Of a stretch of DNA of 29,595 nucleotides, positions 15,714-28,926 are shown piece after piece. The notes under the pieces are model-generated. The model worked only from the letters and a program-made list of their open reading frames with translations, was not told the origin of the DNA and made no database searches. How positions within the stretch are numbered: position 1 is the first letter of the stretch; every line of letters starts with the position of its first letter. This DNA comes from Lachnospiraceae bacterium. Its GTDB lineage: Bacteria > Bacillota > Clostridia > Lachnospirales > Lachnospiraceae. The DNA is taken from the NCBI GenBank assembly GCA_902363665.1, contig CABJAW010000025.1, forward strand, positions 1 through 29,595. Reading direction: 5' to 3'. The position numbers were made by a program, and so were the translations under genes.

Positions 15714-15720
15714 TCACTGA
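15666..15720 (+). repeat. Left attachment repeat (attL), tuf 3' end
   Basis: 55 bp identical to 25811-25865, covering the last 16 codons of tuf, the stop and 7 bp beyond. Similarity continues at a lower level through the terminator to CGTAAATTT at 15822-15830, matching 25980-25988. Confidence 0.88.
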
Positions 15721-15734
15721 CTAATATATATTGA

Positions 15735-15799
15735 GTACCGCAAGGTACATTGTGTCCAAACGTAAGATACCCCGGAACCGTAAGGTTTCCGGGGTTTTT
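15735..15799 (+). terminator. tuf terminator, left copy, with upstream GNRA hairpin
   Basis: A small hairpin GTACC-GCAA-GGTAC (15735-15748) is followed by the intrinsic terminator CCCCGGAA/TTCCGGGG (15770-15794) and a T run. The same two-part structure, with different stem bases, recurs at 25890-25955. Confidence 0.88.
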
Positions 15800-15907
15800 C
15801 TGTACTCTAAGAAAAGAATTATTCGTAAATTTATCAGGTTAGTAATAGTGAAACATTTATCAGCAAGATGAAATACAGATAAATTTATAATTAAAAAATA
15901 AGACCAG

Positions 15908-15927
15908 CGGTGCCAAAACGGTGCCAA
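15908..15927 (+). repeat. Terminal direct repeat, left
   Basis: CGGTGCCAAAACGGTGCCAA, itself two tandem GGTGCCAA units, is found again in the same orientation at 25684-25703. Paired sites just inside both ends of an element suggest arm-type binding sites for the integrase N-terminal domain; inference from known tyrosine-integrase systems such as Tn916. Confidence 0.7.
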
Positions 15928-15933
15928 AAAGAA

Positions 15934-15968
15934 ACTCCTGCGAATGTTTGCTATTCACAGGAGTATTT
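15934..15968 (-). terminator. Bidirectional terminator at the element's left end
   Basis: ACTCCTG...CAGGAGT (15934-15964) with a nested GAAT/ATTC pair. T runs lie on both strands: TTTTTTT on the plus side, TTCTTTTT on the minus side. It ends the minus-strand repressor gene and shields it from tuf read-through. Confidence 0.8.
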
Positions 15969-15970
15969 TT

Positions 15971-16453
15971 TTACCAGCCTTTGATCTGTTTGATTTGTTC
16001 AGCACGTTCTGGATCACGATGATATTGTAATTTCAGACGGATAGTTTCCACAACTTCCTGTCTGGATTCATCATCAAGCTGATAGAACGATGTAAGCAGA
16101 TTATCTACATCAGGCATACTGTTCTTACCGAAAAGGTACATCAGCGGATACATAGAATTTTTTAAGTAAGTCTTTACACGACTTGCGTCTAATGCTCCGT
16201 TCAAACCGTCTGGAAGTGTAGGATAAATCTCTTCTTCCTTAATTGTGCCAGAAAATGGACTGGCAGAACATATCTCATTCACATCAATTTGCAATTCATT
16301 CGCAAGTCTTAATGCAAAATCAAATCGAATATTGGAATCTTTTTGAATAATTGAATATAAGGTTGTAGCACTGATTCCGGTTGCCTTTGCAATTTTGCGG
16401 ACATTTGTGCCTTTTTCATCAAGATATTTCTTTAAATTTTTACCGTCACCCAT
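15971..16453 (-). CDS. XRE-family transcriptional repressor
   Basis: 160 aa from ATG 16453, chosen because AAGGAGG lies 5 bp upstream; an earlier in-frame ATG at 16471 would precede that site. Residues 6-63 are a Cro/C1-type helix-turn-helix (LKKYLDEKGTNVRKIAKATGIS...LANELQIDVNEIC). The C-terminal half is helical and unassigned. Divergent from the excisionase-integrase genes, with TACGA-type inverted repeats between them, as expected for a repressor keeping excision and replication genes silent in the integrated state. That role is inferred from position. Confidence 0.85.
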   Translation of the reverse strand: MGDGKNLKKYLDEKGTNVRKIAKATGISATTLYSIIQKDSNIRFDFALRLANELQIDVNEICSASPFSGTIKEEEIYPTLPDGLNGALDASRVKTYLKNSMYPLMYLFGKNSMPDVDNLLTSFYQLDDESRQEVVETIRLKLQYHRDPERAEQIKQIKGW

Positions 16454-16482
16454 AGAATCCTCCTTTTTCATATATTAGAAAA

Positions 16483-16628
16483 TTACGAAAAACATAAATC
16501 TATAAAATATCATAACACAGACGTGGAATAAAATAAAGAAAAAATAGTGTACGAAGTTCGTAAAAATGTGTTTACGAAATATTGACAACGATAGAAATAC
16601 ATGATATTATCAATTTACGAAAATCGTA
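16483..16628. promoter_or_regulatory. Operator sites for the XRE repressor
   Basis: Two palindromes, TACGAAGTTCGTA (16550-16562) and TACGAAAATCGTA (16616-16628), plus half sites TTACGAAA at 16483 and TTACGAAAT at 16572. They bracket the excisionase promoter, one upstream of -35 and one directly downstream of -10. No other gene in the window shows this motif set. Confidence 0.7.
16582..16610 (+). promoter_or_regulatory. Promoter of xis-int
   Basis: TTGACA (16582-16587), 17-bp spacer, TATTAT (16605-16610), sandwiched by the TACGA operators. Confidence 0.82.
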
Positions 16629-16685
16629 CAGATATAGAAATACAGTAAACGTATTCTATATCTGGAGAGGAAAGGAGGAGGCAAT

Positions 16686-16880
16686 ATGGCAAGTTACAAT
16701 TATATGATGAGTGCTGATGAAGTGGCACAGGAATTAAACTGCTCAAAATCTCATGCCTATAAACTGGTGAAAGCTATGAATAAAGAATTATCTGCACAGG
16801 GATATATTACGATGGCTGGAAGAATACCAAAGGCGTTTTGGGCAAAAAAGATGTATGGCTATGAAATAGCAGAAAATTAG
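16686..16880 (+). CDS. xis: Excisionase-like helix-turn-helix protein
   Basis: 64 aa, small and basic. MSADEVAQELNCSKSHAYKLVKAMNKEL (8-35) is a MerR/excisionase-type helix-turn-helix, followed by a short wing region (GRIPKAFWAKKMYG). Preceded by AAAGGAGGAGGCAAT and followed 11 bp later by the integrase, the usual pairing for a recombination directionality factor that steers the integrase toward excision. Function by position and family. Confidence 0.8.
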   Translation: MASYNYMMSADEVAQELNCSKSHAYKLVKAMNKELSAQGYITMAGRIPKAFWAKKMYGYEIAEN

Positions 16881-16891
16881 GGAGGATCAAT

Positions 16892-17983
16892 ATGGCTTAC
16901 AGAGAAAAAGACACAAAAAAATGGACAGCCCAGTGGTTTGAGACAAATGTCATGGGTGAGAAGAAAAAACGCAGAAAGCGTGGATTTGAAACAAAGCGAG
17001 AAGCATTGGAGTTTGAACGAAGCAAAAAGTTGAGCAATGAGCGAAGTATGGATATGAAGCTGAGCGATTTTATTGAGATTTATTTTTCAGACAAACAAAA
17101 TGATCTGAAAGATCGAACAATCAAAAATAAAAGATATATGATGCAACAGCATATCGTTCCATACTTCGGAAATCAGATGATGAGTGAAATCAAGGCTTCA
17201 CAGATTATTCAGTGGCAGAATGAAATTCAGAAAAAAGGCTATTCAGATTCTTATCTGAGAATGATTCAGAATCAGTTGACCAGTCTGTTTACACATGCAG
17301 CTAAAATCTATGACTTGCCGGTTAATCCATGCAAGAAAGTGAAACGAATGGGAAATTCAGATTCAAGAAGTTTGAACTTCTGGACACTGGACGAGTACAA
17401 ACAGTTTATACAGACAATGGAGCCGGGAACAAGATATTATCTTATGTTTGAGATGCTGTTCTGGACTGGATGCAGGATCGGGGAGCTGCTTGCGATTACA
17501 AAAGCTGATATCAATTTTGAAAAGAATCAGCTTAGTATCAATAAGACTTATTACCGGACAGGAATGCAGGATATTATCACAGAACCGAAAACAAAACAGT
17601 CCTTTCGGACAATCGAAATTCCGGAATTTCTGAAAGAGGAAATTAAGGAATTTGTAGATGGTCATTACGGAATGCCGGATACAGAAAGATTATTTCCGGT
17701 TGTTCAGGAAGCGGTACAGCATAAGATGAAACGGCAGATTGAGCTGGCAGGAGTGAAGAAAATTCGAGTGCATGATATCAGGCACAGCCATGTGGCTTAT
17801 CTTATTGAGAAAGGTGTGGAACCGTTATTGATTCGGGACAGATTAGGTCATAAAGATATTCGTATCACATTGAACACTTATGGACATCTTTATCCAAATC
17901 AGCAGAGAAAGATTGCAAATCTTCTGGATAATGAAAATGGAAATGCTGTTACCGGATTGGGAGAAGAAAGAGATGAATGTTGA
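16892..17983 (+). CDS. int: Site-specific tyrosine integrase
   Basis: 363 aa. N-terminal arm-binding region (1-50, basic, KKKRRKRGFETKREA), a core-binding SAM-like domain (about 57-150) and the catalytic domain. Catalytic residues: Arg195 (GCRIGELL), Lys235, His294 and Arg297 (HDIR), His320 (LGH) and Tyr330 (NTYGHLYP). All are present, so it should be active. Related to the Tn916/lambda-type integrases common in Firmicutes elements. Expected to recombine the tuf 3' end repeats; target assignment is inferred from the flanking repeats. Confidence 0.94.
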   Translation: MAYREKDTKKWTAQWFETNVMGEKKKRRKRGFETKREALEFERSKKLSNERSMDMKLSDFIEIYFSDKQNDLKDRTIKNKRYMMQQHIVPYFGNQMMSEIKASQIIQWQNEIQKKGYSDSYLRMIQNQLTSLFTHAAKIYDLPVNPCKKVKRMGNSDSRSLNFWTLDEYKQFIQTMEPGTRYYLMFEMLFWTGCRIGELLAITKADINFEKNQLSINKTYYRTGMQDIITEPKTKQSFRTIEIPEFLKEEIKEFVDGHYGMPDTERLFPVVQEAVQHKMKRQIELAGVKKIRVHDIRHSHVAYLIEKGVEPLLIRDRLGHKDIRITLNTYGHLYPNQQRKIANLLDNENGNAVTGLGEERDEC

Positions 17984-18152
17984 AAAGGCAAAAGAAAAAG
18001 CCCAGATAAATAATCTGAGCAAGTTCTCTGATAATCAGATTCACTGATATACCATCTTGGCAGATTCAGTATATCACGAATCGGGAAATACGACAATTCC
18101 CGAATATCTGTTCATCAGAGACTTGCCCGGAAGGGCAGGAGGAGATGATGGA
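17984..18152 (+). other. Structured spacer between int and the ATPase gene
   Basis: 169 bp with several stems: CAGAT/ATCTG near 18003-18018, GATATAC/GTATATC (about 18046-18076), CGGGAA/TTCCCG (about 18083-18103) and GCCC-ggaa-GGGC (18126-18137). The last sits just before the ribosome binding site. Repeated CAGATT-type words could be initiator-binding sites for the adjacent RepA-like protein, but this is a weak guess. Confidence 0.35.
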
Positions 18153-19235
18153 ATGAATATGAATGAAAAAAATAAAATTGAGAATTGTAGAATAGAACCA
18201 AAACTGAAACTGATCAATATGGATTCAGTAGAGGTGGAACAGGTAGAATGGCTGCTTTATCCGTTTATTCCTTATGGAAAAGTGACCATTATACAGGGAG
18301 ATCCAGGAGAAGGCAAGACAACGATGGTACTTCAGATTATTGCAAAACTGACCAGAGGAGAGCCGATTCTTCCTGTTACTGATAAAACGAAAACAAAAGA
18401 AAAACGAAGTGATGAAGTCGATAGTGAGAATGAAGATTTAGATGCTGAAGATAATATGCAGGAACAGTCTTCTGTGTCACCTGTAAATGTAATCTATCAG
18501 ACAGCAGAAGATGGACTTGGAGATACTATCAAACCCAGATTACTTGCTGCAGGTGCAGATTGTTCAAAGGTGCTGGTGATTGATGACAGTGACCAGCCAC
18601 TGACAATGGCAGATGTCAGATTGGAAGAAGCAATCGTGCAGACAAAAGCAAAAATGGTTGTTCTTGATCCGATACAGGGCTTTCTGGGAGCGGACGTAGA
18701 TATGCACAGGGCAAATGAGATCAGACCACTGATGAAGCGTATCGCAGTGCTGTCAGAAAAATATCACTGTGCAGTTATTTTAATCGGTCATATGAACAAA
18801 AACAGCAACGGCAAATCTTCTTATCGAGGACTTGGCTCCATTGATTTTCAGGCTGCTGCAAGAAGTGTTCTGATTGTCGGGCGAGTGAAAGATGAACCGG
18901 AAGTAAGAGTGGTATGTCATACGAAGAGTTCTCTTGCACCGGAAGGAACGTCCATTGCATTCAGACTGGATAAGAATAATGGGTTTGAATGGATTGGAGA
19001 ATATGATATCAGTGCCGATGAACTTCTTAATGGAGACGGAAGAGGACAGAAAAGTCGGAAAGCAAAAGAATTTCTCCTTGAGATACTGGCAAATGGAGGA
19101 ATGACTCAGAAGAAAATTGCAGAAGAAGCAGAAGCCAGAGGAATCAAAAGTAAAACGCTATGGAACGCCAAACGGGAACTTGAAATTGATTCCGTAAAAC
19201 GTGGAAAGCAATGGTATTGGATGTTGCCAGAATAA
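18153..19235 (+). CDS. RepA-like AAA ATPase (replicative helicase family)
   Basis: 360 aa from ATG 18153, preceded by AGGAGGAG; longer in-frame starts reach into structured spacer. Walker A GDPGEGKTT (49-57), Walker B MVVLDP followed by an H-motif ILIGHMNKN, and GLGSIDFQAAARSVLIVGR typical of the RepA/KaiC-like hexameric helicases of mobilizable elements. A highly charged insert (about 79-108) lies between the Walker motifs. The C-terminal 60 residues look like a winged helix (TQKKIAEEAEARGIKSKTLW). It may support replication of the excised circle. Confidence 0.85.
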   Translation: MNMNEKNKIENCRIEPKLKLINMDSVEVEQVEWLLYPFIPYGKVTIIQGDPGEGKTTMVLQIIAKLTRGEPILPVTDKTKTKEKRSDEVDSENEDLDAEDNMQEQSSVSPVNVIYQTAEDGLGDTIKPRLLAAGADCSKVLVIDDSDQPLTMADVRLEEAIVQTKAKMVVLDPIQGFLGADVDMHRANEIRPLMKRIAVLSEKYHCAVILIGHMNKNSNGKSSYRGLGSIDFQAAARSVLIVGRVKDEPEVRVVCHTKSSLAPEGTSIAFRLDKNNGFEWIGEYDISADELLNGDGRGQKSRKAKEFLLEILANGGMTQKKIAEEAEARGIKSKTLWNAKRELEIDSVKRGKQWYWMLPE

Positions 19236-19302
19236 AAATGGAAGATGGCAAGATTACCATTTCTTAAGAAGAGGGGATCTTGCTACCTTGAAAGGAGAAT
19301 AG

Positions 19303-19542
19303 ATGCAAAATAAAAGTGTACAGATTCCATACGAGTTATTCTTTCAGCTCTTGCAATATTTTTTGATGGATAACTACGATGGTGAAGAAATAATACGGTT
19401 GGGATTGGAGAAAAAACTGGATGCAATGGTGAATCGTGAAGTATACAGCAAATCCAAAACAGCACCAACGGAAGAAGAAAGAGAAAAGTTCCGGAAGGAA
19501 TATCTGGACAGACGGGGAATACCGGAGAACTTTCGATGGTAA
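19303..19542 (+). CDS. Small hypothetical protein of the element
   Basis: 79 aa, start after AAAGGAGAATAG. Starts with IPYELFFQLLQYFLMDN, then a charged helical stretch and EEEREKFRKEYLDRRGIP. No domain that I can name with certainty. It lies between the ATPase and the mobilization genes in the same direction, so it probably belongs to the element's maintenance operon. Confidence 0.7.
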   Translation: MQNKSVQIPYELFFQLLQYFLMDNYDGEEIIRLGLEKKLDAMVNREVYSKSKTAPTEEEREKFRKEYLDRRGIPENFRW

Positions 19543-19716
19543 AGGTTCTTTCTGAACACTTTATTACAGGAGCGTGTCACGCACCTGTAGATAGCAGACA
19601 AGGAGAATGTTGGTAAGGTGTAGTCGGGAGTTGACTGGCGTAGAAGAGAATTTTCAAAAGGGAGCCCTGATTCAGGGCGCCCCTGCGGAAACGGTAGATG
19701 AAAGGAGATTGGCACA
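19543..19716 (+). other. Spacer with strong palindromes
   Basis: A near-perfect palindrome ACAGG-a-GCGTG-t-CACGC-a-CCTGT at 19566-19588 and a hairpin GCCCTG-att-CAGGGC at 19664-19678. Together with the RepA-like gene upstream, this may be part of an origin of replication or transfer; unproven. Confidence 0.4.
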
Positions 19717-19944
19717 ATGAGAGAAGGAAGATTAGGATATAACAGTTATAACAAAAGATATGGATTATTATCATCAGATCTATGGATTGATACAGGATTT
19801 CACTGTGGAGAATGCCTGGAAGTGTTGCTTGATGATGAATGGGTTCAGACCAGAATGGAAATGAATCCTGCAAGAGAATGGTATCTTGTAGGGACACCGT
19901 ATTGTGGTGATTTGGAATATATTCGGGCAAGGATACCGGAGTAA
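19717..19944 (+). CDS. DUF5348-like small protein
   Basis: 75 aa with RYGLLSSDLWIDTGFHCGEC, a predicted mixed beta fold and the ending YLVGTPYCGDLEYIRARIPE, which I recall as the DUF5348 pattern of clostridial mobile elements. Ribosome binding site AAAGGAGATTGGCACA. It lies just ahead of the relaxase region. Function unknown in the family as far as I know. Confidence 0.75.
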   Translation: MREGRLGYNSYNKRYGLLSSDLWIDTGFHCGECLEVLLDDEWVQTRMEMNPAREWYLVGTPYCGDLEYIRARIPE

Positions 19945-19952
19945 AGGTCTCT

Positions 19953-20035
19953 GTACCCCCGGAGGGCGCAAGGGTACTTTTGATGGACGGTACGGCTGTC
20001 GAAAGTGCTTTTGCGTTACTTTTGACAAAAGTAAC
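19953..20035 (+). other. Candidate origin of transfer (oriT)
   Basis: Directly upstream of the relaxase gene are GTACCC/GGGTAC (19953-19977) and a perfect 10-bp inverted repeat GTTACTTTTG-a-CAAAAGTAAC (20015-20035). MOBV relaxases act on inverted repeats near their own gene. The nick position cannot be assigned. Confidence 0.5.
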
Positions 20036-20139
20036 AAAACCGCCGTATCCGGCGAATATTTCTTTTTATACTATAGCTGGCAAAGATACAAATTTATGTG
20101 CCATGTCTGGCACTGGTTTTAGAAAGCGGGGTGAGGAAT

Positions 20140-21561
20140 ATGACGATGAAACGAACAATCAGTGGTATGATCGGGACAGGGTCTCTGGCTCATAACAGAC
20201 GAGATTTTATAGCAGAAAATGTTGATCCAGACAGAGTGCAATTAAATATTTGTTACCGGAATGAGAATCTGAAAGAAGTCTATAAAGAGCTGTTTGATGA
20301 AGCTGTAGAACGGTATAATGTCGGGAAAAGAAAAGATCGGCAGATTACAAATTATTATGAAAAGATTCGCCAAGGAAAACAGGAAAAGTTGTTCCATGAA
20401 GTGATTTTCCAGATTGGAAACCGAGAAGATATGGCTGTTGGAACAGAAGCAGGAGATCTGGCTGTAAACGTACTGGATGAGTATGTAAAAGATTTCCAGA
20501 AACGGAATCCGACACTTCGGGTATTTAGTTGCTATCTGCATCAGGATGAGGCTACTCCACATCTCCATATTGATTTTATTCCTTATGTGACGGACTGGAA
20601 AGGAAAAGGAATGGATACCAGAGTTTCACTGAAACAGGCATTAAAAAGTCTTGGATTTCAAGGTGGAAATAAGCATGATACGGAACTGAATCAGTGGATA
20701 AATCATGAAAAAGAAGTTCTGGCAGAGACTGCAAAGCAGTATGGAATTGAATGGGAACAGAAAGGTACTCATGAGGAACATCTGGATGTCTATAACTTCA
20801 AGAAAAAAGAACGGAAAAAGGAAGTACAGGAATTGGAGCAGGAGAAAGAGCATCTAACTGCTGAAAAAGAAGAATTAACAGCACAAATTGCAGAATCCAG
20901 AGCAGATATCCAGAATTTAAAAGACGATAAGGAACAGGCAATCAAGGCGAAGCAAGAAGCAGAACAAAAGGCAGGGAGCGCAGAAAAAGAACTAAAAAGC
21001 CTGGAAGATCGCAGAGAACAGCTACAACCGATTATGGATAGTGTGAGCAAAGAAATCAAAGAATATGGAACGGTTAAAATGTTACTGCCGGAGGCGGGCA
21101 CGCTAGAACGGGCAGTAACCTATCGAGATAAAAAAATTAAACCACTGTTTCTTCAAATAAAGAATAAGGTTGCTGTAATGGCGGCTCAGGTTAAAGAACT
21201 TACGAAAGAGGTGGAAGGTTGGAAGAGAAAATATCAAAAGGTGAAACAAAAATATAATGCTATTCAGAGAGAACTGGATGATATACGTAAAGATAATCAG
21301 AAATTGTCAGAAGAAAAAGATATATTACAAGGTGTTTCTGATAGGTATGATCGTGTTGTGCGTGTTCTTGGAATAGAAACTGTAGATACAGCAGTACAGC
21401 AGGATATTCAAAACGAGAAAGTCCTGGAAGAAAAGCGACGGATGGAACAAATGCCGAAGGGAAATATTCATGAAAGATTGGCATGGGGAATGAAAAAAAG
21501 CGAGATGGAGAATCAGCAGCGTAAGAAAACTAAATCAAAAAACAGAGAAATGGAGAGATAA
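20140..21561 (+). CDS. mobV: MOBV-family relaxase (Mob/Pre)
   Basis: 473 aa from ATG 20140; ATG 20146 is equally possible, with GAGG 9 bp upstream. The N-terminal half is the relaxase domain. HQDEATPHLHIDFIPY (134-149) is the metal-binding motif III of MOBV relaxases: His134, Asp136, Glu137, His141, His143. The early GSLAHNRRDFIAENVDPDR is the usual N-terminal signature. From about 215 on, the protein is a long coiled coil rich in Glu, Lys and Gln. It nicks oriT and pilots the DNA through a helper conjugation system, since none is encoded here. Confidence 0.9.
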   Translation: MTMKRTISGMIGTGSLAHNRRDFIAENVDPDRVQLNICYRNENLKEVYKELFDEAVERYNVGKRKDRQITNYYEKIRQGKQEKLFHEVIFQIGNREDMAVGTEAGDLAVNVLDEYVKDFQKRNPTLRVFSCYLHQDEATPHLHIDFIPYVTDWKGKGMDTRVSLKQALKSLGFQGGNKHDTELNQWINHEKEVLAETAKQYGIEWEQKGTHEEHLDVYNFKKKERKKEVQELEQEKEHLTAEKEELTAQIAESRADIQNLKDDKEQAIKAKQEAEQKAGSAEKELKSLEDRREQLQPIMDSVSKEIKEYGTVKMLLPEAGTLERAVTYRDKKIKPLFLQIKNKVAVMAAQVKELTKEVEGWKRKYQKVKQKYNAIQRELDDIRKDNQKLSEEKDILQGVSDRYDRVVRVLGIETVDTAVQQDIQNEKVLEEKRRMEQMPKGNIHERLAWGMKKSEMENQQRKKTKSKNREMER

Positions 21562-21565
21562 GATT

Positions 21566-22042
21566 ATGGAAACACACATTTATGATGAAAAGAACGGATT
21601 AAGCTATACTTTGCATGGAGATTATTATTTGCCGGATTTGGTATTGAATGAAGAAGAACCGATATATGGGAAATATGGAATGCTGAGGAAACAGTTTCTG
21701 AAGGAACACAGATTAGCAAAATATCAATATTTGTTGTTGACTGGAAAGCTGACGGAACACCTGAATCAAATTGATCAGGAGAGCAGAGAGCAGGTGGAAA
21801 TGCTTATGGAACAGATGGCAGAAAAACAGGGCGTAACTGAAGAATTAAAGGTACAGAATCGGACGAAGTGGGTTAGACTGATGAATAATATAAAAGCTAG
21901 TGCAGAAGAAATGGTGTTGAAACTTCTGAAAAGCACATTGTTTGTAAAACTCCCTGCTATTAGGTTCCACATTCTCACCTCCTTTCTCGTTGGAAAGTTG
22001 GTGGTGCTTCCCCCTTTTCGCGGGGCAATACGGCGTTTTTGA
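21566..22042 (+). CDS. tnpV: TnpV-like protein with foreign C-terminus
   Basis: 158 aa as read. Residues 1-119 match my recollection of the TnpV family of Tn4451-type elements: HGDYYLPDLVL, YGMLRKQFLKEHR, LLLTGKLTEHLNQID, MAEKQGVTEELK and WVRLMNNIKASAEEMVLK. TnpV proteins normally end soon after this last motif. Here the frame runs on for 39 residues (LLKSTLFVKLPAI...) that read as antisense of another gene start, so the natural end has been replaced at about nt 21925. Starts 4 bp after the relaxase stop. Function unknown. Confidence 0.7.
   Translation: METHIYDEKNGLSYTLHGDYYLPDLVLNEEEPIYGKYGMLRKQFLKEHRLAKYQYLLLTGKLTEHLNQIDQESREQVEMLMEQMAEKQGVTEELKVQNRTKWVRLMNNIKASAEEMVLKLLKSTLFVKLPAIRFHILTSFLVGKLVVLPPFRGAIRRF
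21945..21983 (-). pseudogene. Orphan gene start facing tnpV
   Basis: On the minus strand a strong AAAGGAGGTGAGA precedes an ATG (21974) reading MWNLIAGSFTNNVLFR before running into the antisense of tnpV. It looks like the 5' end of a gene whose body was lost at the tnpV junction. Short, so uncertain. Confidence 0.35.
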
Positions 22043-22127
22043 AAAACGCCGAAGATTTTTTGAAATTTTTTCAAAAAATTTTTTGAGCAGCAAAATACGC
22101 CTGTCCGAAAAGCCCGGACAGGCGTAT
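22030..22127. terminator. Hairpins at the left edge of the cargo cassette
   Basis: CGGCGTTTTT/AAAACGCCG (about 22031-22051) is followed by T-rich sequence. Then comes a 13-bp perfect stem ATACGCCTGTCCG/CGGACAGGCGTAT (22095-22127). These probably end the relaxase operon. No gene is visible in 22043-22145. Confidence 0.55.
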
Positions 22128-22145
22128 AGGTATTGTAAGCAGTAT

Positions 22146-22256
22146 TTAGATGATTAGACAGTTCATAGTCAAGGGTAGAGAGGTTCCCGGCGGTGGTCGG
22201 GCTTTTTTTGATATGTCAATGACCGTCGGATTTTGTCGATAGGGTATGTGCTTCAT
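22146..22256 (-). CDS. 36-aa ORF with hairpin-sequestered ribosome binding site
   Basis: On the minus strand the sequence GGCGGCTA-AAGGAGG-TAGCCGCC (22279-22257) places a perfect Shine-Dalgarno in the loop of an 8-bp stem, directly followed by ATG 22256. The peptide starts MKHIPYRQNPTVIDISKKAR and ends TMNCLII. A plus-strand terminator (CCCG/CGGG plus seven T, 22186-22209) lies within it. It may be the truncated start of a lost mobile-element gene; translation is not certain. Confidence 0.4.
   Translation of the reverse strand: MKHIPYRQNPTVIDISKKARPPPGTSLPLTMNCLII
22186..22209 (+). terminator. Plus-strand intrinsic terminator
   Basis: CCCG (22186-22189) pairs with CGGG (22198-22201) and is followed by CTTTTTTT. 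22280-22426 hold no recognisable gene. Confidence 0.6.
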
Positions 22257-22426
22257 GGCGGCTACCTCCTTTAGCCGCCGCTTTTAACAGTGATACCGCG
22301 TCATTTCATTAGAAGATAAAAAGAAACGGCGGCTTTGATTTTTCAAAGCTGCTGCGGAAATCAAAGAACGACAAGCAACAGTTCTGATTTTGCTCCAATA
22401 TGGTTATTAGGGGCACAAATTAAAAT

Positions 22427-22476
22427 CAAAAAAGAGCCGATAACAGCAGTATTTCAAACTGCATATTATCGGCTCT
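22427..22476 (-). terminator. Terminator of the KTR-rlmN-like operon
   Basis: On the minus strand AGAGCCGATAA (22476-22466) pairs with TTATCGGCTCT (22443-22433), with a nested GCAGT/ACTGC stem, followed by six T. It lies 30 bp past the methyltransferase stop. Confidence 0.9.
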
Positions 22477-22506
22477 GCGTCTGTGCGTCTGGCTCTTTTA
22501 ATTAAA

Positions 22507-23496
22507 TTATTTCTGTTGTTTTTTGGCTTTATTATATGTATTAGCTAACTGTCCACAAGCTGCTTTAATCTCTCTACCATGAGAAACTCTCATGGTAACT
22601 TCAAGTCCTGTTTGCTCTAATTGATGTTTGAACGCAACCATTTCTTGTTTTTGTGGTGCTCTAATTTTTGAATTACTCGTCGGGTTGTATTGCAGCACGT
22701 TAATCATAACATTTTTGCCCTTAAACCATTTTGCAAGTTGCCTTATATCTGAGGAACGGTCATTTATACCTGGTAAAAGCAAATACGCAAATACCACTTT
22801 TCGATTATGCCTTTGAGAATAGGACAATGCTTGCTTAACAACATCTTCAATAGCGTACATGTGCATATGAGGAATGATACAGTTTCTCGCAGCCTGTGTT
22901 GCTGCATGTAAAGATATTGTCAACTGAATTTTTAGATGTTCTTCGCGCAATTTTTTTAATTGATTAACTGGACCAACTGTTGATACGGTAATGCCGTCGG
23001 TTGGAAAGTTAAGTCCATTTCTATCTCGAAGAATATGGATTGCTGCAATCAAGTTGTCGTAATTGAATAAAGGTTCTCCCATTCCCATAAAAACGATACG
23101 ATTTACTTTTTGACGTATCAATACAACCTGCTGCACAATTTCAGACGGTGTTAGATTACGAACAAAACCATTGCGTCCGGACTCACAAAAAATACAGCCA
23201 ACAGAACAACCAACTTGCGTACTTACGCAAACAGTCCCACCATCTCGCCGTTTAATAAAAACCGTTTCAATATACCTGTTATCTTTCAATTCATAAACAT
23301 ACTTTTCAGTATCGCTACTTTTATAGACTTTTTTTGTTGATATTGATAGATTTTCTTTGTGAAATGGCTGTTTATACAATTCCGTATATAAGGCTCTTGC
23401 TTTATCCTCTCCAATTACTTCCGACATTTCTTTGTAAGTAAATCCGTATGGGTCATTCAATATTTCCGTAGGTGTACTTTTAGGTAAGTGTTTCAT
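22507..23496 (-). CDS. RlmN/Cfr-like radical SAM 23S rRNA methyltransferase
   Basis: 329 aa. Radical-SAM cluster cysteines 97, 101 and 104 (CSVGCIFC), GMGEP (138-142), a conserved Cys90 in VCVSTQ matching Cys105 of Cfr, and the methyl-carrying Cys314 in AACGQL. All catalytic landmarks of the RlmN/Cfr family (A2503 C2 or C8 methylation of 23S rRNA) are present. The N-terminal 85 residues are short and unlike standard housekeeping RlmN, and CESG replaces the usual CATG. It is cargo of a mobile element, behind a drug-type attenuator with a KTR gene, which suggests a resistance role, but Cfr-type C8 activity cannot be inferred. Ribosome binding site AAGGAAGG, 8 bp before the start. Confidence 0.85.
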   Translation of the reverse strand: MKHLPKSTPTEILNDPYGFTYKEMSEVIGEDKARALYTELYKQPFHKENLSISTKKVYKSSDTEKYVYELKDNRYIETVFIKRRDGGTVCVSTQVGCSVGCIFCESGRNGFVRNLTPSEIVQQVVLIRQKVNRIVFMGMGEPLFNYDNLIAAIHILRDRNGLNFPTDGITVSTVGPVNQLKKLREEHLKIQLTISLHAATQAARNCIIPHMHMYAIEDVVKQALSYSQRHNRKVVFAYLLLPGINDRSSDIRQLAKWFKGKNVMINVLQYNPTSNSKIRAPQKQEMVAFKHQLEQTGLEVTMRVSHGREIKAACGQLANTYNKAKKQQK

Positions 23497-23519
23497 TTAA
23501 ATATCCTTCCTTTTCAAAA

Positions 23520-23699
23520 TTAAAAAGTTTGTTTTTCAGAGTTTTTGATTATGATTTCTAGTTTTTCAACATCAACGATATGCGTTAATTTACATTTAGG
23601 GCAGAAAAGAGGAAAATTTCTTAATACCGTATTATAAAATACTTGAACCCTCGTCTTTCCGTTACAAATTGGACATTTTATCCAATATTTTTCAAGCAT
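23520..23699 (-). CDS. Cysteine-rich KTR protein
   Basis: 59 aa from ATG 23699, just downstream of AAAGGAGAAAT. Two CxxC pairs, KCPICNGKTRVQV and FCPKCK, form a likely zinc ribbon, with the KTR tripeptide in the first knuckle. This family is best known as the small ORF associated with tet(M) in Tn916-like elements. It is the first gene of a two-gene operon with the methyltransferase (23-bp gap) and directly follows the attenuator terminator. Function unknown. Confidence 0.85.
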   Translation of the reverse strand: MLEKYWIKCPICNGKTRVQVFYNTVLRNFPLFCPKCKLTHIVDVEKLEIIIKNSEKQTF

Positions 23700-23717
23700 A
23701 ATATTTCTCCTTTTGCG

Positions 23718-23763
23718 CAAAAAAATGCAGGTCAATTCTCAACATGAGCATTGACCTGCATTT
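23718..23763 (-). terminator. Attenuator terminator 2
   Basis: AAATGCAGGTCAAT (23723-23736) is perfectly complementary to ATTGACCTGCATTT (23750-23763). A run of seven T on the minus strand follows. It is 20 bp upstream of the KTR start, so by default it should block operon expression. Confidence 0.88.
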
Positions 23764-23907
23764 ATACATATAATACTACAACAAAATTAAGGCATAGTTT
23801 TTATACTATGTCTATACGTCGTTAGTTTTGTTGTATAGCATACGCAAAATAAGCATGACAAAAAAGCCCATATTGAAAATGGGAAAAATCTTTTTTGATT
23901 TCAATGC

Positions 23908-23934
23908 TTATCGAATACGCATGCTATGTAACAT
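23908..23934 (-). CDS. Leader peptide MLHSMRIR with macrolide-arrest motif
   Basis: Eight codons, ATG at 23934, after the run AAGGGGGGGA on the minus strand (7-bp spacing); an in-frame ATG at 23940 would give MFMLHSMRIR. The peptide closely resembles the start of the ErmD leader (MTHSMRLR), where the Arg-X-Arg motif stalls macrolide-bound ribosomes. It lies inside the 5' arm of the leader's long stem, the right place for stalling to change the RNA fold. Stalling itself is inferred. Confidence 0.7.
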   Translation of the reverse strand: MLHSMRIR

Positions 23935-23959
23935 AAACATTCCCCCCCTTTTATATAAT

Positions 23960-23987
23960 ATTATATACAAAAGCAGCTTGTTGTCAA
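23960..23987 (-). promoter_or_regulatory. Promoter of the KTR-rlmN-like operon
   Basis: On the minus strand TTGACA (23987-23982), 16-bp spacer, TATAAT (23965-23960) with an upstream TG. Confidence 0.8.
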
Positions 23988-24083
23988 CATATATATATAT
24001 GAATTATTTTGGCTAACTGATAGAACTATGTAGACATATCCAAGAAGAAAGGGGAACAGTAAAATGTAAGAGGGTGAATAACT

Positions 24084-24323
24084 ATGGCAAAAAGACCAGT
24101 ACCAAAATACGACTTCAAGGCTTTTGGGGCAGCGATAAAGGCAGCGCGTGAAGGACGCAAGGAAAGCCGCAAGAAAGTAGGCGACGAAATGTTTATCTCG
24201 CCGCGCTACCTTGCGAACATTGAGAACAAGGGGCAGCACCCAAGTTTACAGATATTCTTTGAGCTGATACAGCGTTACCATATATCCGTATCTCATTACT
24301 TCCAGCTTTGGCACGACTATTGA
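24084..24323 (+). pseudogene. Tn916 Orf9-like HTH regulator, truncated
   Basis: 79 aa as read. KYDFKAFGAAIKAAREGRKESRKKVGDEMFISPRYLANIENKGQHPSLQ is the helix-turn-helix region of Tn916 Orf9-type regulators. Similarity runs to HISV (codons ending at 24290) and is then lost; the full-length family is about 115 aa. The sequence beyond belongs, in another frame, to a different regulator. Ribosome binding site GAGGGTG. Divergent from the KTR-rlmN-like promoter, so it may still bind there, but the dimerisation part is missing. Confidence 0.75.
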
Positions 24324-25216
24324 AAATTGATATGAATGAATTGTTTTCGTTTCATGAAGAATTGACAGAAAAAGAGATTGGACAATTTGTGAATGAACTT
24401 TCGGAAGTTTCATTGGACAGCTTTACAGAGGCTTTCGAGATGGCATCTCGTAAAATACAGGAGTATCCTCATTGCGACTTATTAATATATACGATCGCAA
24501 CCGTTCTGAACGGATCTTTGACTTTGTCAGATCTTAATGACGAAGAACGAATGGAATATAATACAGCTATTATTGAGTGGCTGGAACGAACAGCAGATAG
24601 TCAGGATGAAAGAGTGAGAAATTCAAGCGTTTTTATACTTGCAACAAAATATGTCCAAATGGAGAAATATGAAGAAGCAAATGCCCTTTTGAAAAAAATT
24701 CCTGATACTGTAATTGATGCAACGATTATGAAAACAAGTGTATTAGCACATCAGGAAGGAACAGATACTGCTGCATTATTCTTAGAAGGGAAATTGCTAC
24801 AGGCAGTTATCAATATCCAAAGCTACTTGTATAAGTTAATAGAAATGGAAGAAGAGACAGGAAATCATGATAAAGCAGAGAAAATTGCTGAGATTACAGA
24901 TCACATGATATCATTGTTTGGACTATGGAATTATGGCAACACAGTTCCATATCTGCTGATTGCTGGATATCGAAAAGATGTAGAAAAATGTATCCAGTTA
25001 ATTAAGCGATTATTAAGTGAATCACAGAAGCCTTGGAATATGACACAATCCCCTTTGTATTACAGGTATGAAGATACTGCACAGGGAAAAGCTTTTTCGG
25101 GACTTGGAAAAAATTTTGTTCGTGAATTGTATTCGGAAATTGAAAATAAGAAAGAGTATGAATTCTTGAGGGGGAATAAGGAACTCGAATCAATTTTTGA
25201 GGAACACTTGAAATAG
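24291..25216 (+). pseudogene. 3' part of a XRE-family regulator (HTH domain lost)
   Basis: The open frame begins ISLLPALARLLKIDMNELFSFHEELTEKEI, which is the segment that follows the helix-turn-helix domain in a large class of clostridial XRE regulators. About 290 further helical residues (TPR-like, 24360-25216) follow and are uninterrupted. The helix-turn-helix and start codon are missing, replaced at about 24290 by the Orf9-like gene in a different frame. Internal TTG 24308 or ATG 24332 might still permit translation of a tail fragment. The codons are AT-rich like the rest of the element. Confidence 0.7.
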
Positions 25217-25264
25217 GTTGTAAAAATGTATGGAAATAGATGTAGTTGAGAAAGAAGAAAATTT

Positions 25265-25293
25265 TTGACATTTCCACAGATGCGTGCTAATAT
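25265..25293 (+). promoter_or_regulatory. Promoter of the putative antitoxin RNA
   Basis: TTGACA (25265-25270), 17-bp spacer, TAATAT (25288-25293). No ORF follows; only a short transcript to the terminator at 25348-25392. Confidence 0.75.
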
Positions 25294-25299
25294 GATTAT

Positions 25300-25393
25300 A
25301 GAAAAAGAGTGCTACCGATAGACGGTTAGTCCACATACTTATTGATTACAAAAATAACCGTTCAGTTTGCAGGCTGGGGCGGTTATTTTTGTG
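25300..25393 (+). ncRNA. Putative type I antitoxin RNA
   Basis: About 95 nt between a good promoter and a 13-bp perfect bidirectional terminator (ACAAAAATAACCG 25348-25360, CGGTTATTTTTGT 25380-25392). Its 3' end is antisense to the end of the toxin mRNA. Its 5' part (25309-25332) has nearly the same sequence as the 5' part of the toxin mRNA. Layout resembles the Fst/par family, in which convergent RNAs share a terminator. Confidence 0.65.
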
Positions 25394-25481
25394 GTTTATG
25401 ATTATCTTTGCCTAATGTATATCCGATACTAAAGCAGGTTAAGCCGAAGCTCACTACTGCTATGAAGTCCACAATACTCAT
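25383..25481 (-). CDS. Small hydrophobic toxin-like peptide (type I TA)
   Basis: 32 aa: MSIVDFIAVVSFGLTCFSIG, then YTLGKDNHKPQK. One membrane segment (about 5-23) and a charged C-terminus, as in Fst/holin-like type I toxins of Firmicutes. ATG 25481 has AAAGGAGGG 8 bp upstream. The stop codon lies in the stem of the bidirectional terminator. The 5' UTR of about 110 nt contains CAGAGGG/CCCTCTG and a pyrimidine block (CCTTCTCC) that could mask the ribosome binding site. No cognate family is proven. Confidence 0.7.
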   Translation of the reverse strand: MSIVDFIAVVSFGLTCFSIGYTLGKDNHKPQK

Positions 25482-25595
25482 TGGCTTAGCCCTCCTTTCC
25501 ACTGGATTCCTTTACAGGTTTCTATGTAATCAGAGGGTCACAGTCCCTCTGGAGAAGGACTAACCGCCTACCGTTATGGTAGCACCCATGTTTCG

Positions 25596-25624
25596 ATTAT
25601 AACAGTTAAAAATTACCGGTGCAA
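25596..25624 (-). promoter_or_regulatory. Promoter of the toxin-like mRNA
   Basis: On the minus strand TTGCAC (25624-25619), 17-bp spacer, TATAAT (25601-25596). Confidence 0.8.
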
Positions 25625-25683
25625 TATAAAGTTGGTAGAGAAGTATCTAGTATCTACAGAAGAGAATCGGTTTGAGTATTCTC

Positions 25684-25703
25684 CGGTGCCAAAACGGTGC
25701 CAA
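25684..25703 (+). repeat. Terminal direct repeat, right
   Basis: Exact copy of 15908-15927 in the same orientation, 107 bp inside the right attachment repeat. No gene is visible in 25625-25998 apart from the attachment site and terminator. Confidence 0.7.
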
Positions 25704-25810
25704 GAAATCAGGCAAATCAAAATAGGTGGTGCAATTCAGCTGTTTTTCACTGTATTTTGGAGAGAAAACCATAAAAAATATGAGATAAAACGGGATTAAA
25801 GTATCGTGAG

Positions 25811-25865
25811 GGTGGACGTACTGTAGGATCAGGACGTGTTGCTACAATCATCGAGTAATCACTGA
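25811..25865 (+). repeat. Right attachment repeat (attR)
   Basis: 55 bp identical to the tuf 3' end (15666-15720), preceded by non-tuf sequence. It is a stub of tuf without an upstream gene, as expected at the far junction of an element integrated in tuf. Confidence 0.88.
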
Positions 25866-26792: not shown

Positions 26793-26821
26793 TTGCATTT
26801 TTCATGATAATTGCATATAAT
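26793..26821 (+). promoter_or_regulatory. Promoter of the type III antitoxin RNA
   Basis: TTGCAT (26793-26798), 17-bp spacer, TATAAT (26816-26821). It is immediately followed by a small hairpin AGCAAG/CTTGCT and the repeat array. Confidence 0.82.
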
Positions 26822-26847
26822 ATAAATGAGCAAGAAAGCTTGCTTGA

Positions 26848-26955
26848 TTTAAGTGCGTTGCTACTTTGAGTGCAAACCTTTAATTTAAGTGCTTCACTAC
26901 TTTGAATGTGAACCTTTAATTTAAGTGCTTCGCAGCTTAAAATGCGAATCGTTAA
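26848..26955 (+). ncRNA. toxI: Type III antitoxin RNA: three 36-nt repeats (ToxI-like)
   Basis: Three tandem units of exactly 36 bp start at 26848, 26884 and 26920, each opening with TTTAAGTGC. In every unit, positions 4-7 (AAGT) can pair with 16-19 (ACTT or GCTT), while 10-14 in that loop pair with 25-29: TTGC/GCAA, TTCAC/GTGAA, TTCGC/GCGAA. That is an H-type pseudoknot with covarying bases. The unit length equals that of ToxI of the Pectobacterium ToxIN system. The array lies between a promoter and a terminator and directly ahead of a ToxN-like gene, the standard type III toxin-antitoxin layout. Confidence 0.88.
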
Positions 26956-26959
26956 TTTC

Positions 26960-26992
26960 AGGGAGATAAGACTCTTATCTCCCTGTTTTGTT
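26960..26992 (+). terminator. Terminator between antitoxin RNA and toxN
   Basis: AGGGAGATAA (26960-26969) pairs with TTATCTCCCT (26975-26984) followed by GTTTTGTT. In ToxIN loci such a terminator sets the ratio of antitoxin RNA to toxin mRNA. Confidence 0.88.
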
Positions 26993-27011
26993 ATACTATG
27001 TAGGAGAAAAT

Positions 27012-27515
27012 ATGGATTTTTATCGTATAAATGAGGAATACAATCAGTATCTCCAGAGGTATGAAAAAGAAAAAAGAGGGGTTACAAAGGTACCTAATAT
27101 CAGATATACTGATCGAAATAAATTTGCTTTCGGTGCAGTTATGCAGGTTAATGGAATAAACTATTAGGTGTCTGTATCTTCTTTTGACAAAAAGCAGGAA
27201 GCTAACATTTTGATCCGTATACCGGGAGATGAAAAAGAAATCAAGGGGTCTTTACGATTCAACTATATGATTCCAGTGCCGGAGGAGTGTATTGAAAGAC
27301 TGGTTATTAAAGATGTAGAGGATGAAAAATACCGCTTGTTACTAAATAAGGAATATCAATTTTGTATGGACAATGCTGAGCGGATTCAGAAAAAAGCAAA
27401 TAAAATATATGAAATGGTTATAACAAATCGAAAACAGAAATTAACTGACAACAGTTGTTCTTTTAGTATTTTGGAGCAGGGATACCAAGAATATGTTGAA
27501 AATGTTTTGAAATAA
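27012..27515 (+). pseudogene. toxN: ToxN/AbiQ-family type III toxin, amber-interrupted
   Basis: Reading through one TAG gives 167 residues, the usual ToxN size. The N-terminus is MDFYRINEEYNQYLQRYEKE; KVPNIRY and AFGAVMQVNGINY follow up to codon 51, then TAG (27165-27167). It resumes in the same frame with VSVSSFDKKQEANILIRIPGD, GSLRFNYMIPVPEE and a helical C-terminus. ToxN is an endoribonuclease that cleaves its own antitoxin repeats and cellular RNA, and is inhibited by ToxI; several protect against phages. TAG is one change from Tyr (TAT/TAC), which fits the GINY-Y context. A restart at GTG 27168 would lack the N-terminal strands and is unlikely to be active. Confidence 0.85.
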
Positions 27516-28250: not shown

Positions 28251-28926
28251 TTAAAAGCACGCAGTGCTTTGGGGTTTCCAAATGCCTTTTCAGGATAACT
28301 TAAAAGAACAACCGCATTTTCGATACCATTCAGGTTTCCTTCATACCGGTACACATAATACTTTCGTTTTTTGACTGTCACAAGGTCAAATCCCTTCTCT
28401 GTTACCGATAATTCAGCAGCAAGTTCGCTGAGCTTCTTTTTCATTCCTGACGGGTACAGCAGGCGGTTTGTTTTTAAAGCTACGATGGTTTTGAAGCTAT
28501 GGTATCATCCACAATACAAAAAACAGGCTTTCCGGTGCGCTGTGCTTCTGAATAAATAATTTCAACTACGGAGGATTTTAAAGCATTTTCCAGTAAGGTA
28601 TCATCCCATTTCCCGGAATTGAGGAAATGCGCGATGGTAGTTCTGTGGCAGGAACTGTTTTGTGCAAAGTCGGTAGTCTTTCCATGGTAACCTGAGATAA
28701 AAATACTGATCAGGATACTCATGAGATGACCGATCACTCTGTTCGAAAAAGATTTGCATAAATTTAATTTCTTAAACTGGTTGTATATGAATGTAGAATG
28801 ATGTATAGTATTTGCGAGGGATACCTTCTTTCGTAAATGTTGCAATGTTTGTTTGGTCACTTTCATTATACAATACAAACGATTTAAGGTGTCTTTCTTT
28901 TTATGCAAAATCACGAACTTGCTCAT
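28251..28926 (-). mobile_element. Transposase remnant with internal deletion
   Basis: Two pieces of one DDE transposase (IS4-superfamily type). The N-terminal part (28480-28926) covers MKVTKQTLQHLRKKVSLANT to FCIVDDTIASK. The second part (28250-28478) reads ALKTNRLLYPSGMKKKLSEL to NPKALRAF. The catalytic middle is missing at a junction near 28485-28495, and the C-terminus is cut at 28251. It cannot encode an active enzyme. No terminal inverted repeats of an intact IS are seen. Confidence 0.75.

What the first reader, a model, noticed from the sequence alone, without database searches (positions are those of the whole stretch)
26793..27515. Type III toxin-antitoxin locus with pseudoknot repeats and an amber-killed toxin
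Promoter, three exact 36-bp repeats, terminator and a ToxN-like gene are in the classical ToxIN order. The repeats show an H-type pseudoknot whose inner helix covaries between units (TTGC/GCAA, TTCAC/GTGAA, TTCGC/GCGAA), so the RNA fold has been under selection. The toxin frame has a single TAG at codon 52 (27165-27167) with the rest intact, which suggests recent inactivation, or amber read-through. It seems to be a ToxN lineage of gut Firmicutes distinct from the model systems.
Basis: partly seen in the sequence, partly recalled or inferred. Interest (0 to 1): 0.85.

Follow-up and report, generated by a model that had tools for sequence, protein, structure and literature searches.

The report
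Broken ToxIN with ordered antitoxin units
A gut bacterium carries a toxin-antitoxin locus whose toxin gene has a stop signal in the middle, while its RNA antitoxin looks intact and is made of three different units that related loci keep in the same order.

Summary
The locus is real and belongs by descent to the ToxIN family of type III toxin-antitoxin systems: promoter, three 36-nt pseudoknot units (exact spacing, not exact copies), strong terminator, and a ToxN frame cut by one TAG. Searched apart, both toxin pieces hit Pfam ToxN (2.5e-9, 2.6e-31). I add a 5' hairpin before unit 1 (29 of 29 leaders examined).

The toxin is most likely recently dead. All 90 invariant residues tested are kept, TAG is an ordinary stop in this window, and a near-identical allele, judged by its protein, has another lesion. 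Of 43 related loci, 5 are clearly and 1 doubtfully interrupted.

The less expected part is the antitoxin. In this clade the units differ within an array (74.5% identical) but are conserved by position: for 65 of 66 units the nearest relative is the same-position unit elsewhere, while toxin four-fold sites differ at a median 0.66. Eleven measurable arrays of other ToxIN loci are 83-100% alike within themselves, though two of these also show unit-specific helices. I did not find the ordered array described; why it is kept is not shown.

The parts
26793..26821 (+). promoter: -35 TTGCAT (26793-26798), 17-nt spacer, -10 TATAAT (26816-26821)
   Evidence: read by eye; -10 region similar in related leaders; the module shared with relatives starts about here in 22 of 30 loci; not listed by the consensus scanner
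26827..26846 (+). 5' leader hairpin of the antitoxin RNA, 8 pairs (G-U allowed) with a 4-nt loop, abutting unit 1
   Evidence: 29 of 29 leaders have a stem of at least 6 pairs within 27 nt of unit 1 (0-2 nt away in 28, 6 nt in L054) against 16% of shuffled leaders; 15 distinct outer stems; arms of other loci pair at 55%, own arms at 100% by construction
26847..26882 (+). ToxI-like unit 1 (S1 AAGT/ACTT, S2 TTGC/GCAA)
26883..26918 (+). ToxI-like unit 2 (S1 AAGT/ACTT, S2 TTCAC/GTGAA)
26919..26954 (+). ToxI-like unit 3 (S1 AAGT/GCTT with a wobble, S2 TTCGC/GCGAA)
26959..26990 (+). intrinsic terminator between antitoxin and toxin
27002..27006 (+). ribosome-binding site AGGAG of toxN
   Evidence: read by eye
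27012..27515 (+). toxN frame (ToxN/AbiQ family endoribonuclease), interrupted
   Evidence: 90 of 90 tested invariant residues present in the two pieces, the column of the stop left out
27165..27167 (+). in-frame TAG at codon 52 of toxN, a column that is invariant in the 20 relatives aligned

Best explanation
This is a ToxIN-family type III toxin-antitoxin locus in a Blautia-like gut bacterium whose toxin has recently been inactivated by a nonsense mutation. Shown: anatomy, family, covarying pseudoknots, the stop. Inferred: the promoter still makes an antitoxin precursor of about 160 nt that starts with a protective 5' hairpin, carries three pseudoknots and ends at the terminator. In working relatives, terminator read-through would supply a little ToxN, an endoribonuclease that cuts the precursor into units and is held inactive by them until a stress such as phage infection frees it (known for the family). 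Here the stop leaves a 51-aa fragment without the Ser-Ser that aligns with the active site, and at best a restart product of 115 aa without the N-terminal part, so the precursor should stay uncut. It can at most give immunity to a cognate incoming ToxIN; otherwise it decays. In this clade the array is an ordered set of three units kept distinct by position. Inferred role of that order: unit-specific inner helices lower mispairing between neighbouring units while the RNA is made, and reduced identity steadies the copy number at three.
For: Family: both pieces hit PF13958 and AbiQ; the C piece hits ToxN 4ato at 4.7e-10, and an intact relative hits four solved ToxN/AbiQ chains. Recent death: 90 of 90 tested invariant residues kept; array 108 of 108 identical to the Roseburia porci locus although 24 of 40 four-fold sites of toxN differ. 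Not recoding: TAG ends 2 of 15 window genes; no PylS over cut-off in 64 genomes. Another lesion: P0001 holds the C piece letter for letter, with a sense codon where the window has TAG, but its first 32 residues are the window's sequence read in another frame; its DNA was not seen. Toxin loss is not rare: 6 of 43 loci interrupted, one of them doubtful, each with an array still upstream. Order: 22 distinct three-unit arrays, same-position identity 0.857, different-position 0.733, within array 0.745; 65 of 66 nearest neighbours in the same position; 0 of 2000 order shuffles. Some positions outside the helices also differ by unit.
Against: The source assembly is not held, so an assembly or sequencing error at codon 52 cannot be excluded; the lesion of P0001 could be an error too. 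No expression data. The mispairing idea is weak in part: S1 does not differ between units (cross-pairing 95%, own 98%), 54% of cross S2 cores still pair fully if G-U counts, and 5 of 22 arrays lack three distinct S2 cores. The copy-number idea is weakened by about 21 nt still shared around unit junctions (read by eye), and by arrays of two, four and five units (5 of 29). Unit-specific inner helices are not unique to this clade: the two whole units of L007 and the incomplete third unit of L059 differ in the same way (read by eye).
Confidence: 0.75

Rival explanations
1. The TAG is a sequencing or assembly error and the locus is an intact, working ToxIN system.
For: The rest of the frame is fully conserved at the invariant positions; relatives are numerous (840 homologs) and 37 of 43 loci are open across the match. 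The own assembly cannot be inspected.
Against: A near-identical allele seems to carry another lesion, and broken copies occur in several relatives, so a real lesion needs no special pleading.
Confidence: 0.13
2. The locus now serves as a kept orphan antitoxin (anti-addiction RNA): selection keeps ToxI without its toxin, to neutralise cognate ToxN brought by mobile elements. Not exclusive with the best explanation.
For: Array identical to that of an intact relative. One genus genome (G060) has hairpin-like leader, full array and terminator just after the tuf terminator and no toxN in the 6 kb read; G043 keeps five units with a toxin deletion. Excess antitoxin suppressing ToxIN activity is published (PMC3475682, passages seen).
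Against: Arrays without a toxin show decay: in L086 one S2 pair and one S1 pair are broken (read by eye), in L047 unit 1 is mostly deleted, L061 has only two units. The window array is clean, which recent loss explains as well.
Confidence: 0.2
3. Toxin is still made: low read-through of TAG, or restart at the GTG directly after the stop (27168) giving two pieces that reassemble.
For: TAG is followed at once by an in-frame GTG; one metagenome protein (P0002, 5 members) begins exactly at that codon in another allele.
Against: TAG is an ordinary stop in this window; no PylS over cut-off; residues that align with the active site are split between the pieces. The contig of P0002 was not available, so its start may be a contig edge. 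No ribosome-site test was made for the restart.
Confidence: 0.04
4. The position-specific units are a relic: three old units that never recombined, the inner helix changing slowly because both sides must change.
For: Compensated pairs are expected to change slowly; the same order (CAC-type then CGC-type) appears in the two-unit sister group, 10 of 11 loci; most unpaired unit-3 marks are held by only 10 to 15 of 22 arrays.
Against: Unpaired positions 16, 21, 22, 24, 31 and 33 carry unit-specific majority bases while four-fold sites of the same loci differ at a median 0.66; 9 of 11 measurable arrays elsewhere look homogeneous.
Confidence: 0.35

Closest known systems
ToxIN of Pectobacterium atrosepticum (ToxN 2xd0; 36 nt x 5.5 ToxI)
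   Same: Order of repeats, terminator, toxin; 36-nt units; two-stem pseudoknot; PF13958-type toxin.
   Different: ToxI_Pa units differ at a single base (PMC3475682, figure legend seen); here units are 74.5% identical within arrays and position-specific. A 5' hairpin is not mentioned in the passages read. Toxin broken here.
ToxIN of Bacillus thuringiensis (4ato; 34 nt x 2.9)
   Same: Best solved relative of the toxin (that 4ato is the B. thuringiensis protein is recalled); about three units.
   Different: Distant toxin; its array was not compared here.
AbiQ/antiQ of Lactococcus lactis (4glk; 35 nt x 2.8)
   Same: PADLOC AbiQ match for both pieces; about three units.
   Different: Distant toxin (9.3e-5 for an intact relative); its array was not compared here.
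ToxIN loci of Roseburia porci, Hungatella hathewayi WAL-18680, Schaedlerella arabinosiphila, Faecalibacillus intestinalis (L031, L038, L041, L046)
   Same: Same clade: three ordered units of the same kinds, leader hairpin, terminator; array of L031 identical to the window's.
   Different: Their toxin frames are open.

Membership tests
ToxIN (type III toxin-antitoxin) | Toxin of the ToxN/AbiQ family | tested here: met
   PF13958: N piece 2.5e-9, C piece 2.6e-31; AbiQ 0.0016 and 3.1e-22
ToxIN (type III toxin-antitoxin) | Tandem array of repeats of about 34-36 nt upstream of the toxin | tested here: met
   3 x 36 nt
ToxIN (type III toxin-antitoxin) | Rho-independent terminator between array and toxin | tested here: met
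   26959-26985, z -5.87
ToxIN (type III toxin-antitoxin) | Promoter upstream of the array | tested here: inconclusive
   perfect -10, weak -35, read by eye; shared block starts there in 22 of 30 loci; scanner missed it
ToxIN (type III toxin-antitoxin) | Units fold as pseudoknots | tested here: met
   covariation in both stems over 49 units; no experiment
ToxIN (type III toxin-antitoxin) | Open toxin frame | tested here: not met
   TAG at codon 52: member by descent, predicted not to work
ToxIN (type III toxin-antitoxin) | Near-identical repeats within an array (usual, not part of the definition read in PMC5086642) | tested here: not met
   0.745 within arrays of this clade against 0.83-1.00 in the 11 arrays measurable elsewhere
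ToxIN (type III toxin-antitoxin) | Endoribonuclease activity, processing of the antitoxin, 3:3 ring, phage defence | not testable with these tools
   needs experiments; a structure prediction of an intact relative was asked for and never ran
CptIN / TenpIN | Toxin closer to CptN or TenpN than to ToxN | tested here: not met
   only PF13958 passes its cut-off for the two pieces in Pfam; solved hits of an intact relative are ToxN and AbiQ

The most novel reading that the evidence does not exclude
In this gut Firmicutes clade the antitoxin is not a repeat but an ordered set of three different RNAs (A-B-C), each under its own selection, delivered by one precursor in equal numbers. One of each may close the three-toxin ring, so the units would not be interchangeable and the ring would be asymmetric.
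Probability: 0.2. Interest if true: 0.72.

Novelty: new variant of a known kind. Interest (0 to 1): 0.5.

Why it matters
Type III antitoxins are usually treated as repeats of one sequence (the review PMC5086642 shows one consensus repeat per system). An array whose units are distinct and kept in order across genera makes a direct test possible: are antitoxin units interchangeable, and does unit order set assembly or copy number? The set of broken toxins with surviving arrays (nonsense, frameshift, deletion, insertion, complete loss) is a natural series for asking how long an RNA antitoxin outlives its toxin and whether orphan ToxI is kept as protection.

Tried and rejected
Amber as a sense codon: rejected (TAG ends 2 of 15 window genes inspected; no PylS over cut-off in 64 genus genomes; weak matches in 59 of them are below the cut-off, and 13 of 14 controls also ring, 1 over the cut-off). 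Whether the source strain has a suppressor tRNA could not be checked (own genome not held). Plasmid or phage origin of this allele: no DNA match in plasmids or phages; no viral contig found that encodes a relative. Rfam: no family covers the array (one sub-threshold hit, 14.9 bits against 128). Recurrent stop at codon 52: one protein, P0002, starts at that codon, but its contig was not available, so left open. L049, flagged with a stop by my script, was checked and is a natural end. dN/dS against relatives gave no number because synonymous sites are saturated; four-fold and residue differences were used instead. The genus-wide search with the Pfam family on G001 alone rang nowhere, controls included, so it says nothing.

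Literature: title and abstract listings show no paper on non-identical ordered ToxI units. In one search the term 'ToxI' and 'ToxIN' also matched every word beginning so, so these two were of little use. Papers opened: PMC5086642 (outline, sections 2, 3, 4.3 and 7, and passages), PMC8860590 (passages and one results section), PMC5772629 and PMC3475682 (passages). Only this open library is covered; 10.1093/nar/gks231 is not held.

Dropped before counts: one of 50 distinct units (third unit of L055, register shifted); two loci with arrays identical to others were merged (24 loci, 22 distinct arrays); one spurious pick of L032; loci whose unit scores were below 26 or whose unit number was not three were not in the order test. 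The covariance-model searches used stricter filters that can lose weak matches.

Full report
Anatomy. The finding is in the sequence at the stated place. Three units of 36 nt lie at 26847-26954 with exact spacing; the copies are 85% and 74% identical to the first, so they are not exact. A 13-nt-arm terminator hairpin follows at 26959-26985. A promoter can be read by eye upstream (-35 TTGCAT 26793-26798, -10 TATAAT 26816-26821), although the consensus scanner did not list it. A frame from 27012 to 27515 with an AGGAG in front has one in-frame TAG before its end, at 27165-27167. I add one part: a hairpin at 26827-26846 that touches unit 1. All 29 leaders examined have a stem of 6 or more pairs (G-U allowed) near unit 1, 0-2 nt away in 28 and 6 nt in L054, against 16% of base-shuffled leaders; 15 distinct outer stems occur, and arms from other loci pair at 55% (own arms at 100%, by construction). 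L050's stem is poor, and the toxin-less array of G060 folds only 4 pairs there. In Firmicutes a 5'-terminal hairpin is a known way to slow decay from the 5' end (recalled, not tested).

Family. Searched as two separate pieces, the N part (51 aa) and C part (115 aa) both hit PF13958 ToxN above its cut-off, at 2.5e-9 and 2.6e-31, and PADLOC AbiQ; neither hits an NCBIfam model. The C part hits the solved ToxN 4ato at 4.7e-10; the N part alone finds no solved ToxN. An intact relative (P0114) hits ToxN 4ato and 2xd0, 7d8o and AbiQ 4glk. The C part has 840 homologs at E <= 0.001 among 843 candidates (120 listed). So this is ToxIN by descent.

Pseudoknots. In the unit, S1 is columns 5-8 with 17-20 and S2 columns 11-15 with 26-30. 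Over 49 distinct units 94.8% of cells pair, against 17-44% when the partner is slid. S2 pair 13-28 is CG 34, UA 14, UG 1; pair 14-27 is GC 32, AU 17; S1 pair 5-20 is AU 44, GC 4, other 1; pair 8-17 is UA 23, UG 18, CG 4, other 4. S2 pair 11-30 is absent in 18 of 49. Of the tool's shuffle measures, cells paired, cells changed on both sides and the covariation score exceed all 500 shuffles; the number of pairs with a double change (109 of 500 reach it) and of further pair types (496 of 500) do not. The double changes at the two central pairs are plain.

The toxin is probably dead, and recently so. All 90 invariant residues tested in the two pieces are present, the column of the stop left out. 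The 108-nt array is identical to that of Roseburia porci (L031), while 24 of 40 four-fold sites of toxN differ between the two. TAG ends rpoB and a TPR gene here (2 of 15 genes inspected), and none of 64 genus genomes has a pyrrolysyl-tRNA synthetase over the cut-off (1 of 14 controls has), so a sense reading is unlikely. A database protein, P0001, contains the C piece letter for letter and has a sense codon at the place of the TAG, but its first 32 residues equal the window read in another frame: it looks like a near-identical allele with a different lesion, though its DNA was not seen. Among 43 related loci, 37 are open across the match and 6 are interrupted: L047 by an insertion with transposase-like genes (I take it for IS66-type from the gene trio, recalled), L058 and L061 by deletions, L063 by a nonsense codon, L073 by a frameshift, and L050 at its C-terminus near a contig end (doubtful). 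Each of the six keeps an array upstream. In PMC8860590 (passages seen) the catalytic residues of E. coli ToxN are Lys33, Thr52, Ser53 and Lys55. By the alignment to ToxN 2xd0, the Ser-Ser of the C piece stands at Thr52-Ser53 and the lysine region of the N piece near Lys33; the lysine equivalents are uncertain. Neither piece alone should be active.

Host. The own assembly is not held; the nearest held genome G001 shares 24% of sampled words.

Toxin-less arrays. A covariance model of array plus terminator was run on whole genomes. Genus: 4 of 64 genomes match: G043 (toxin with internal deletion), G060 (full array, no toxN), and G001 and G024 (only a single unit-3-like piece with the hairpin). 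A C-terminal toxN remnant without an array match is in G053. Family: 10 of 397: in five (G266, G268, G374, G409, G471) a ToxN of 76-94% identity follows in one unbroken match, G508 is cut by the contig end, G071, G213 and G269 have no ToxN match, and G001 again. Order: 7 of 392, overlapping the others; new are G567 and G724 with a distant ToxN (40% and 29%) and G519 at a contig end. Toxin checks are; the match in G213 looks like the hairpin alone. Against a genus-wide rule: an intact 170-aa ToxN cluster (P0114) bears the name Blautia sp. HCP3S3_C4 in one source. In G060 the orphan array stands directly after the tuf terminator. The window's locus lies about 0.8 kb beyond a copy of that terminator, with a GyrI-like gene between, so the place may or may not be the same by descent. 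The orphan in G060 has begun to lose pairs (unit 1 S2, unit 3 S1; read by eye), which argues against strong selection on ToxI alone.

The ordered array. Of 44 loci (window plus 43), 29 have recognisable units of this type near the gene: 24 have three, 3 have two, one has four and one has five. Twenty-two distinct three-unit arrays were compared. Same-position units of different loci are 85.7% identical, different-position units 73.3%, units within one array 74.5%. For 65 of 66 units the nearest other unit is the same-position unit of another locus; none of 2000 shuffles of unit order comes near (maximum 0.025 against 0.124). The S2 core is TCAC/GTGA in unit 2 of 22 of 22 arrays, TCGC/GCGA in unit 3 of 20 of 22, and TTGC/GCAA in unit 1 of 16 of 22. 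Over 231 pairs of 22 loci with open toxins the median array difference is 0.148, the median residue difference of ToxN 0.28 and the median four-fold difference 0.66: time enough for neutral positions to randomise, so position-specific identity is kept by selection or by very slow change. As a yardstick, 26 other ToxIN loci were examined: 11 gave at least two whole units, 83-100% identical within the array; 2 gave less than two whole units; 13 gave no array with this simple script. Two of the eleven speak against uniqueness: the units of L007 (83%) differ by compensated changes in a helix, and the incomplete third unit of L059 has another S2 (read by eye). In the model ToxI_Pa the repeats differ at one base, and cloning gave 2.5 to 5.5 copies, for which the authors suggest strand slippage (PMC3475682, passages seen). 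A distant two-unit sister group (toxins 36-44% identical to the query) repeats the order CAC-type then CGC-type in 10 of 11 loci.

Why order might be kept. (i) Unit-specific S2 helices lower mispairing between neighbours: mean S2 duplex energy is -3.9 kcal/mol within a unit and -1.2 across units, while S1 shows little difference (-1.2 and -1.0); 54% of cross S2 cores still pair fully with G-U allowed, and 5 of 22 arrays lack three distinct S2 cores. (ii) Reduced identity protects the copy number of three, which suits a three-toxin ring; but about 21 nt around the junctions are still shared. (iii) The units have different jobs in assembly. None is shown; (i) and (ii) are my preferred reading, and the relic explanation is a serious rival.

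Verdict. It is a probably dead member of a known family, with an antitoxin architecture that I did not find described in the searches named (listings only, open-access library only).

Noticed in passing
window 15666-25865: An integrative mobilisable element sits at the 3' end of tuf: exact 55-bp direct repeat 15666-15720 / 25811-25865 (tuf end), with an HTH gene, tyrosine integrase (16892-17983), AAA ATPase and MobV-like relaxase (20098-21561); the same genes also follow tuf in G001 and G006. The ToxIN locus lies outside it.
   Followed up: partly
window 22507-23496 (-): RlmN/Cfr-superfamily rRNA methyltransferase inside that element, below the curated cut-offs of both RlmN (270 of 290 bits) and Cfr (197 of 530) models; identity as a resistance gene not established.
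   Followed up: no
window 23718-23929 (-): Rfam RF02862 sRNA_1300 (50.1 bits, cut-off 48.8) upstream of the RlmN-like gene; an L10 leader at 356-487 is ordinary.
   Followed up: no
window 28480-28926 (-): Transposase-like remnant (DDE_5, 22.2 bits, below its cut-off of 27) whose DNA is multi-copy in genus genomes, for example four places in G053.
   Followed up: no
L094 1501-1675: Array with two longer ToxI-like units (an extra stretch inside) and a short third, then a terminator and a gene whose first 198 aa have no Pfam match, instead of ToxN: possibly an antitoxin-like RNA with another partner.
   Followed up: partly
L095 and L100 1501-1563 (-): A single unit-3-like piece with the terminator hairpin in two genus genomes (G001, G024), with its S2 as TCGT/ACGA, a compensated change (reverse complement read by eye).
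   Followed up: partly
P0002, P0010, P0012, P0023, P0028: Several metagenome ToxN proteins start or change N-terminus within a few residues of the window's stop; P0012 and P0028 share the same foreign N-terminus in different alleles. Could be contig edges or a recurrent breakpoint.
   Followed up: no
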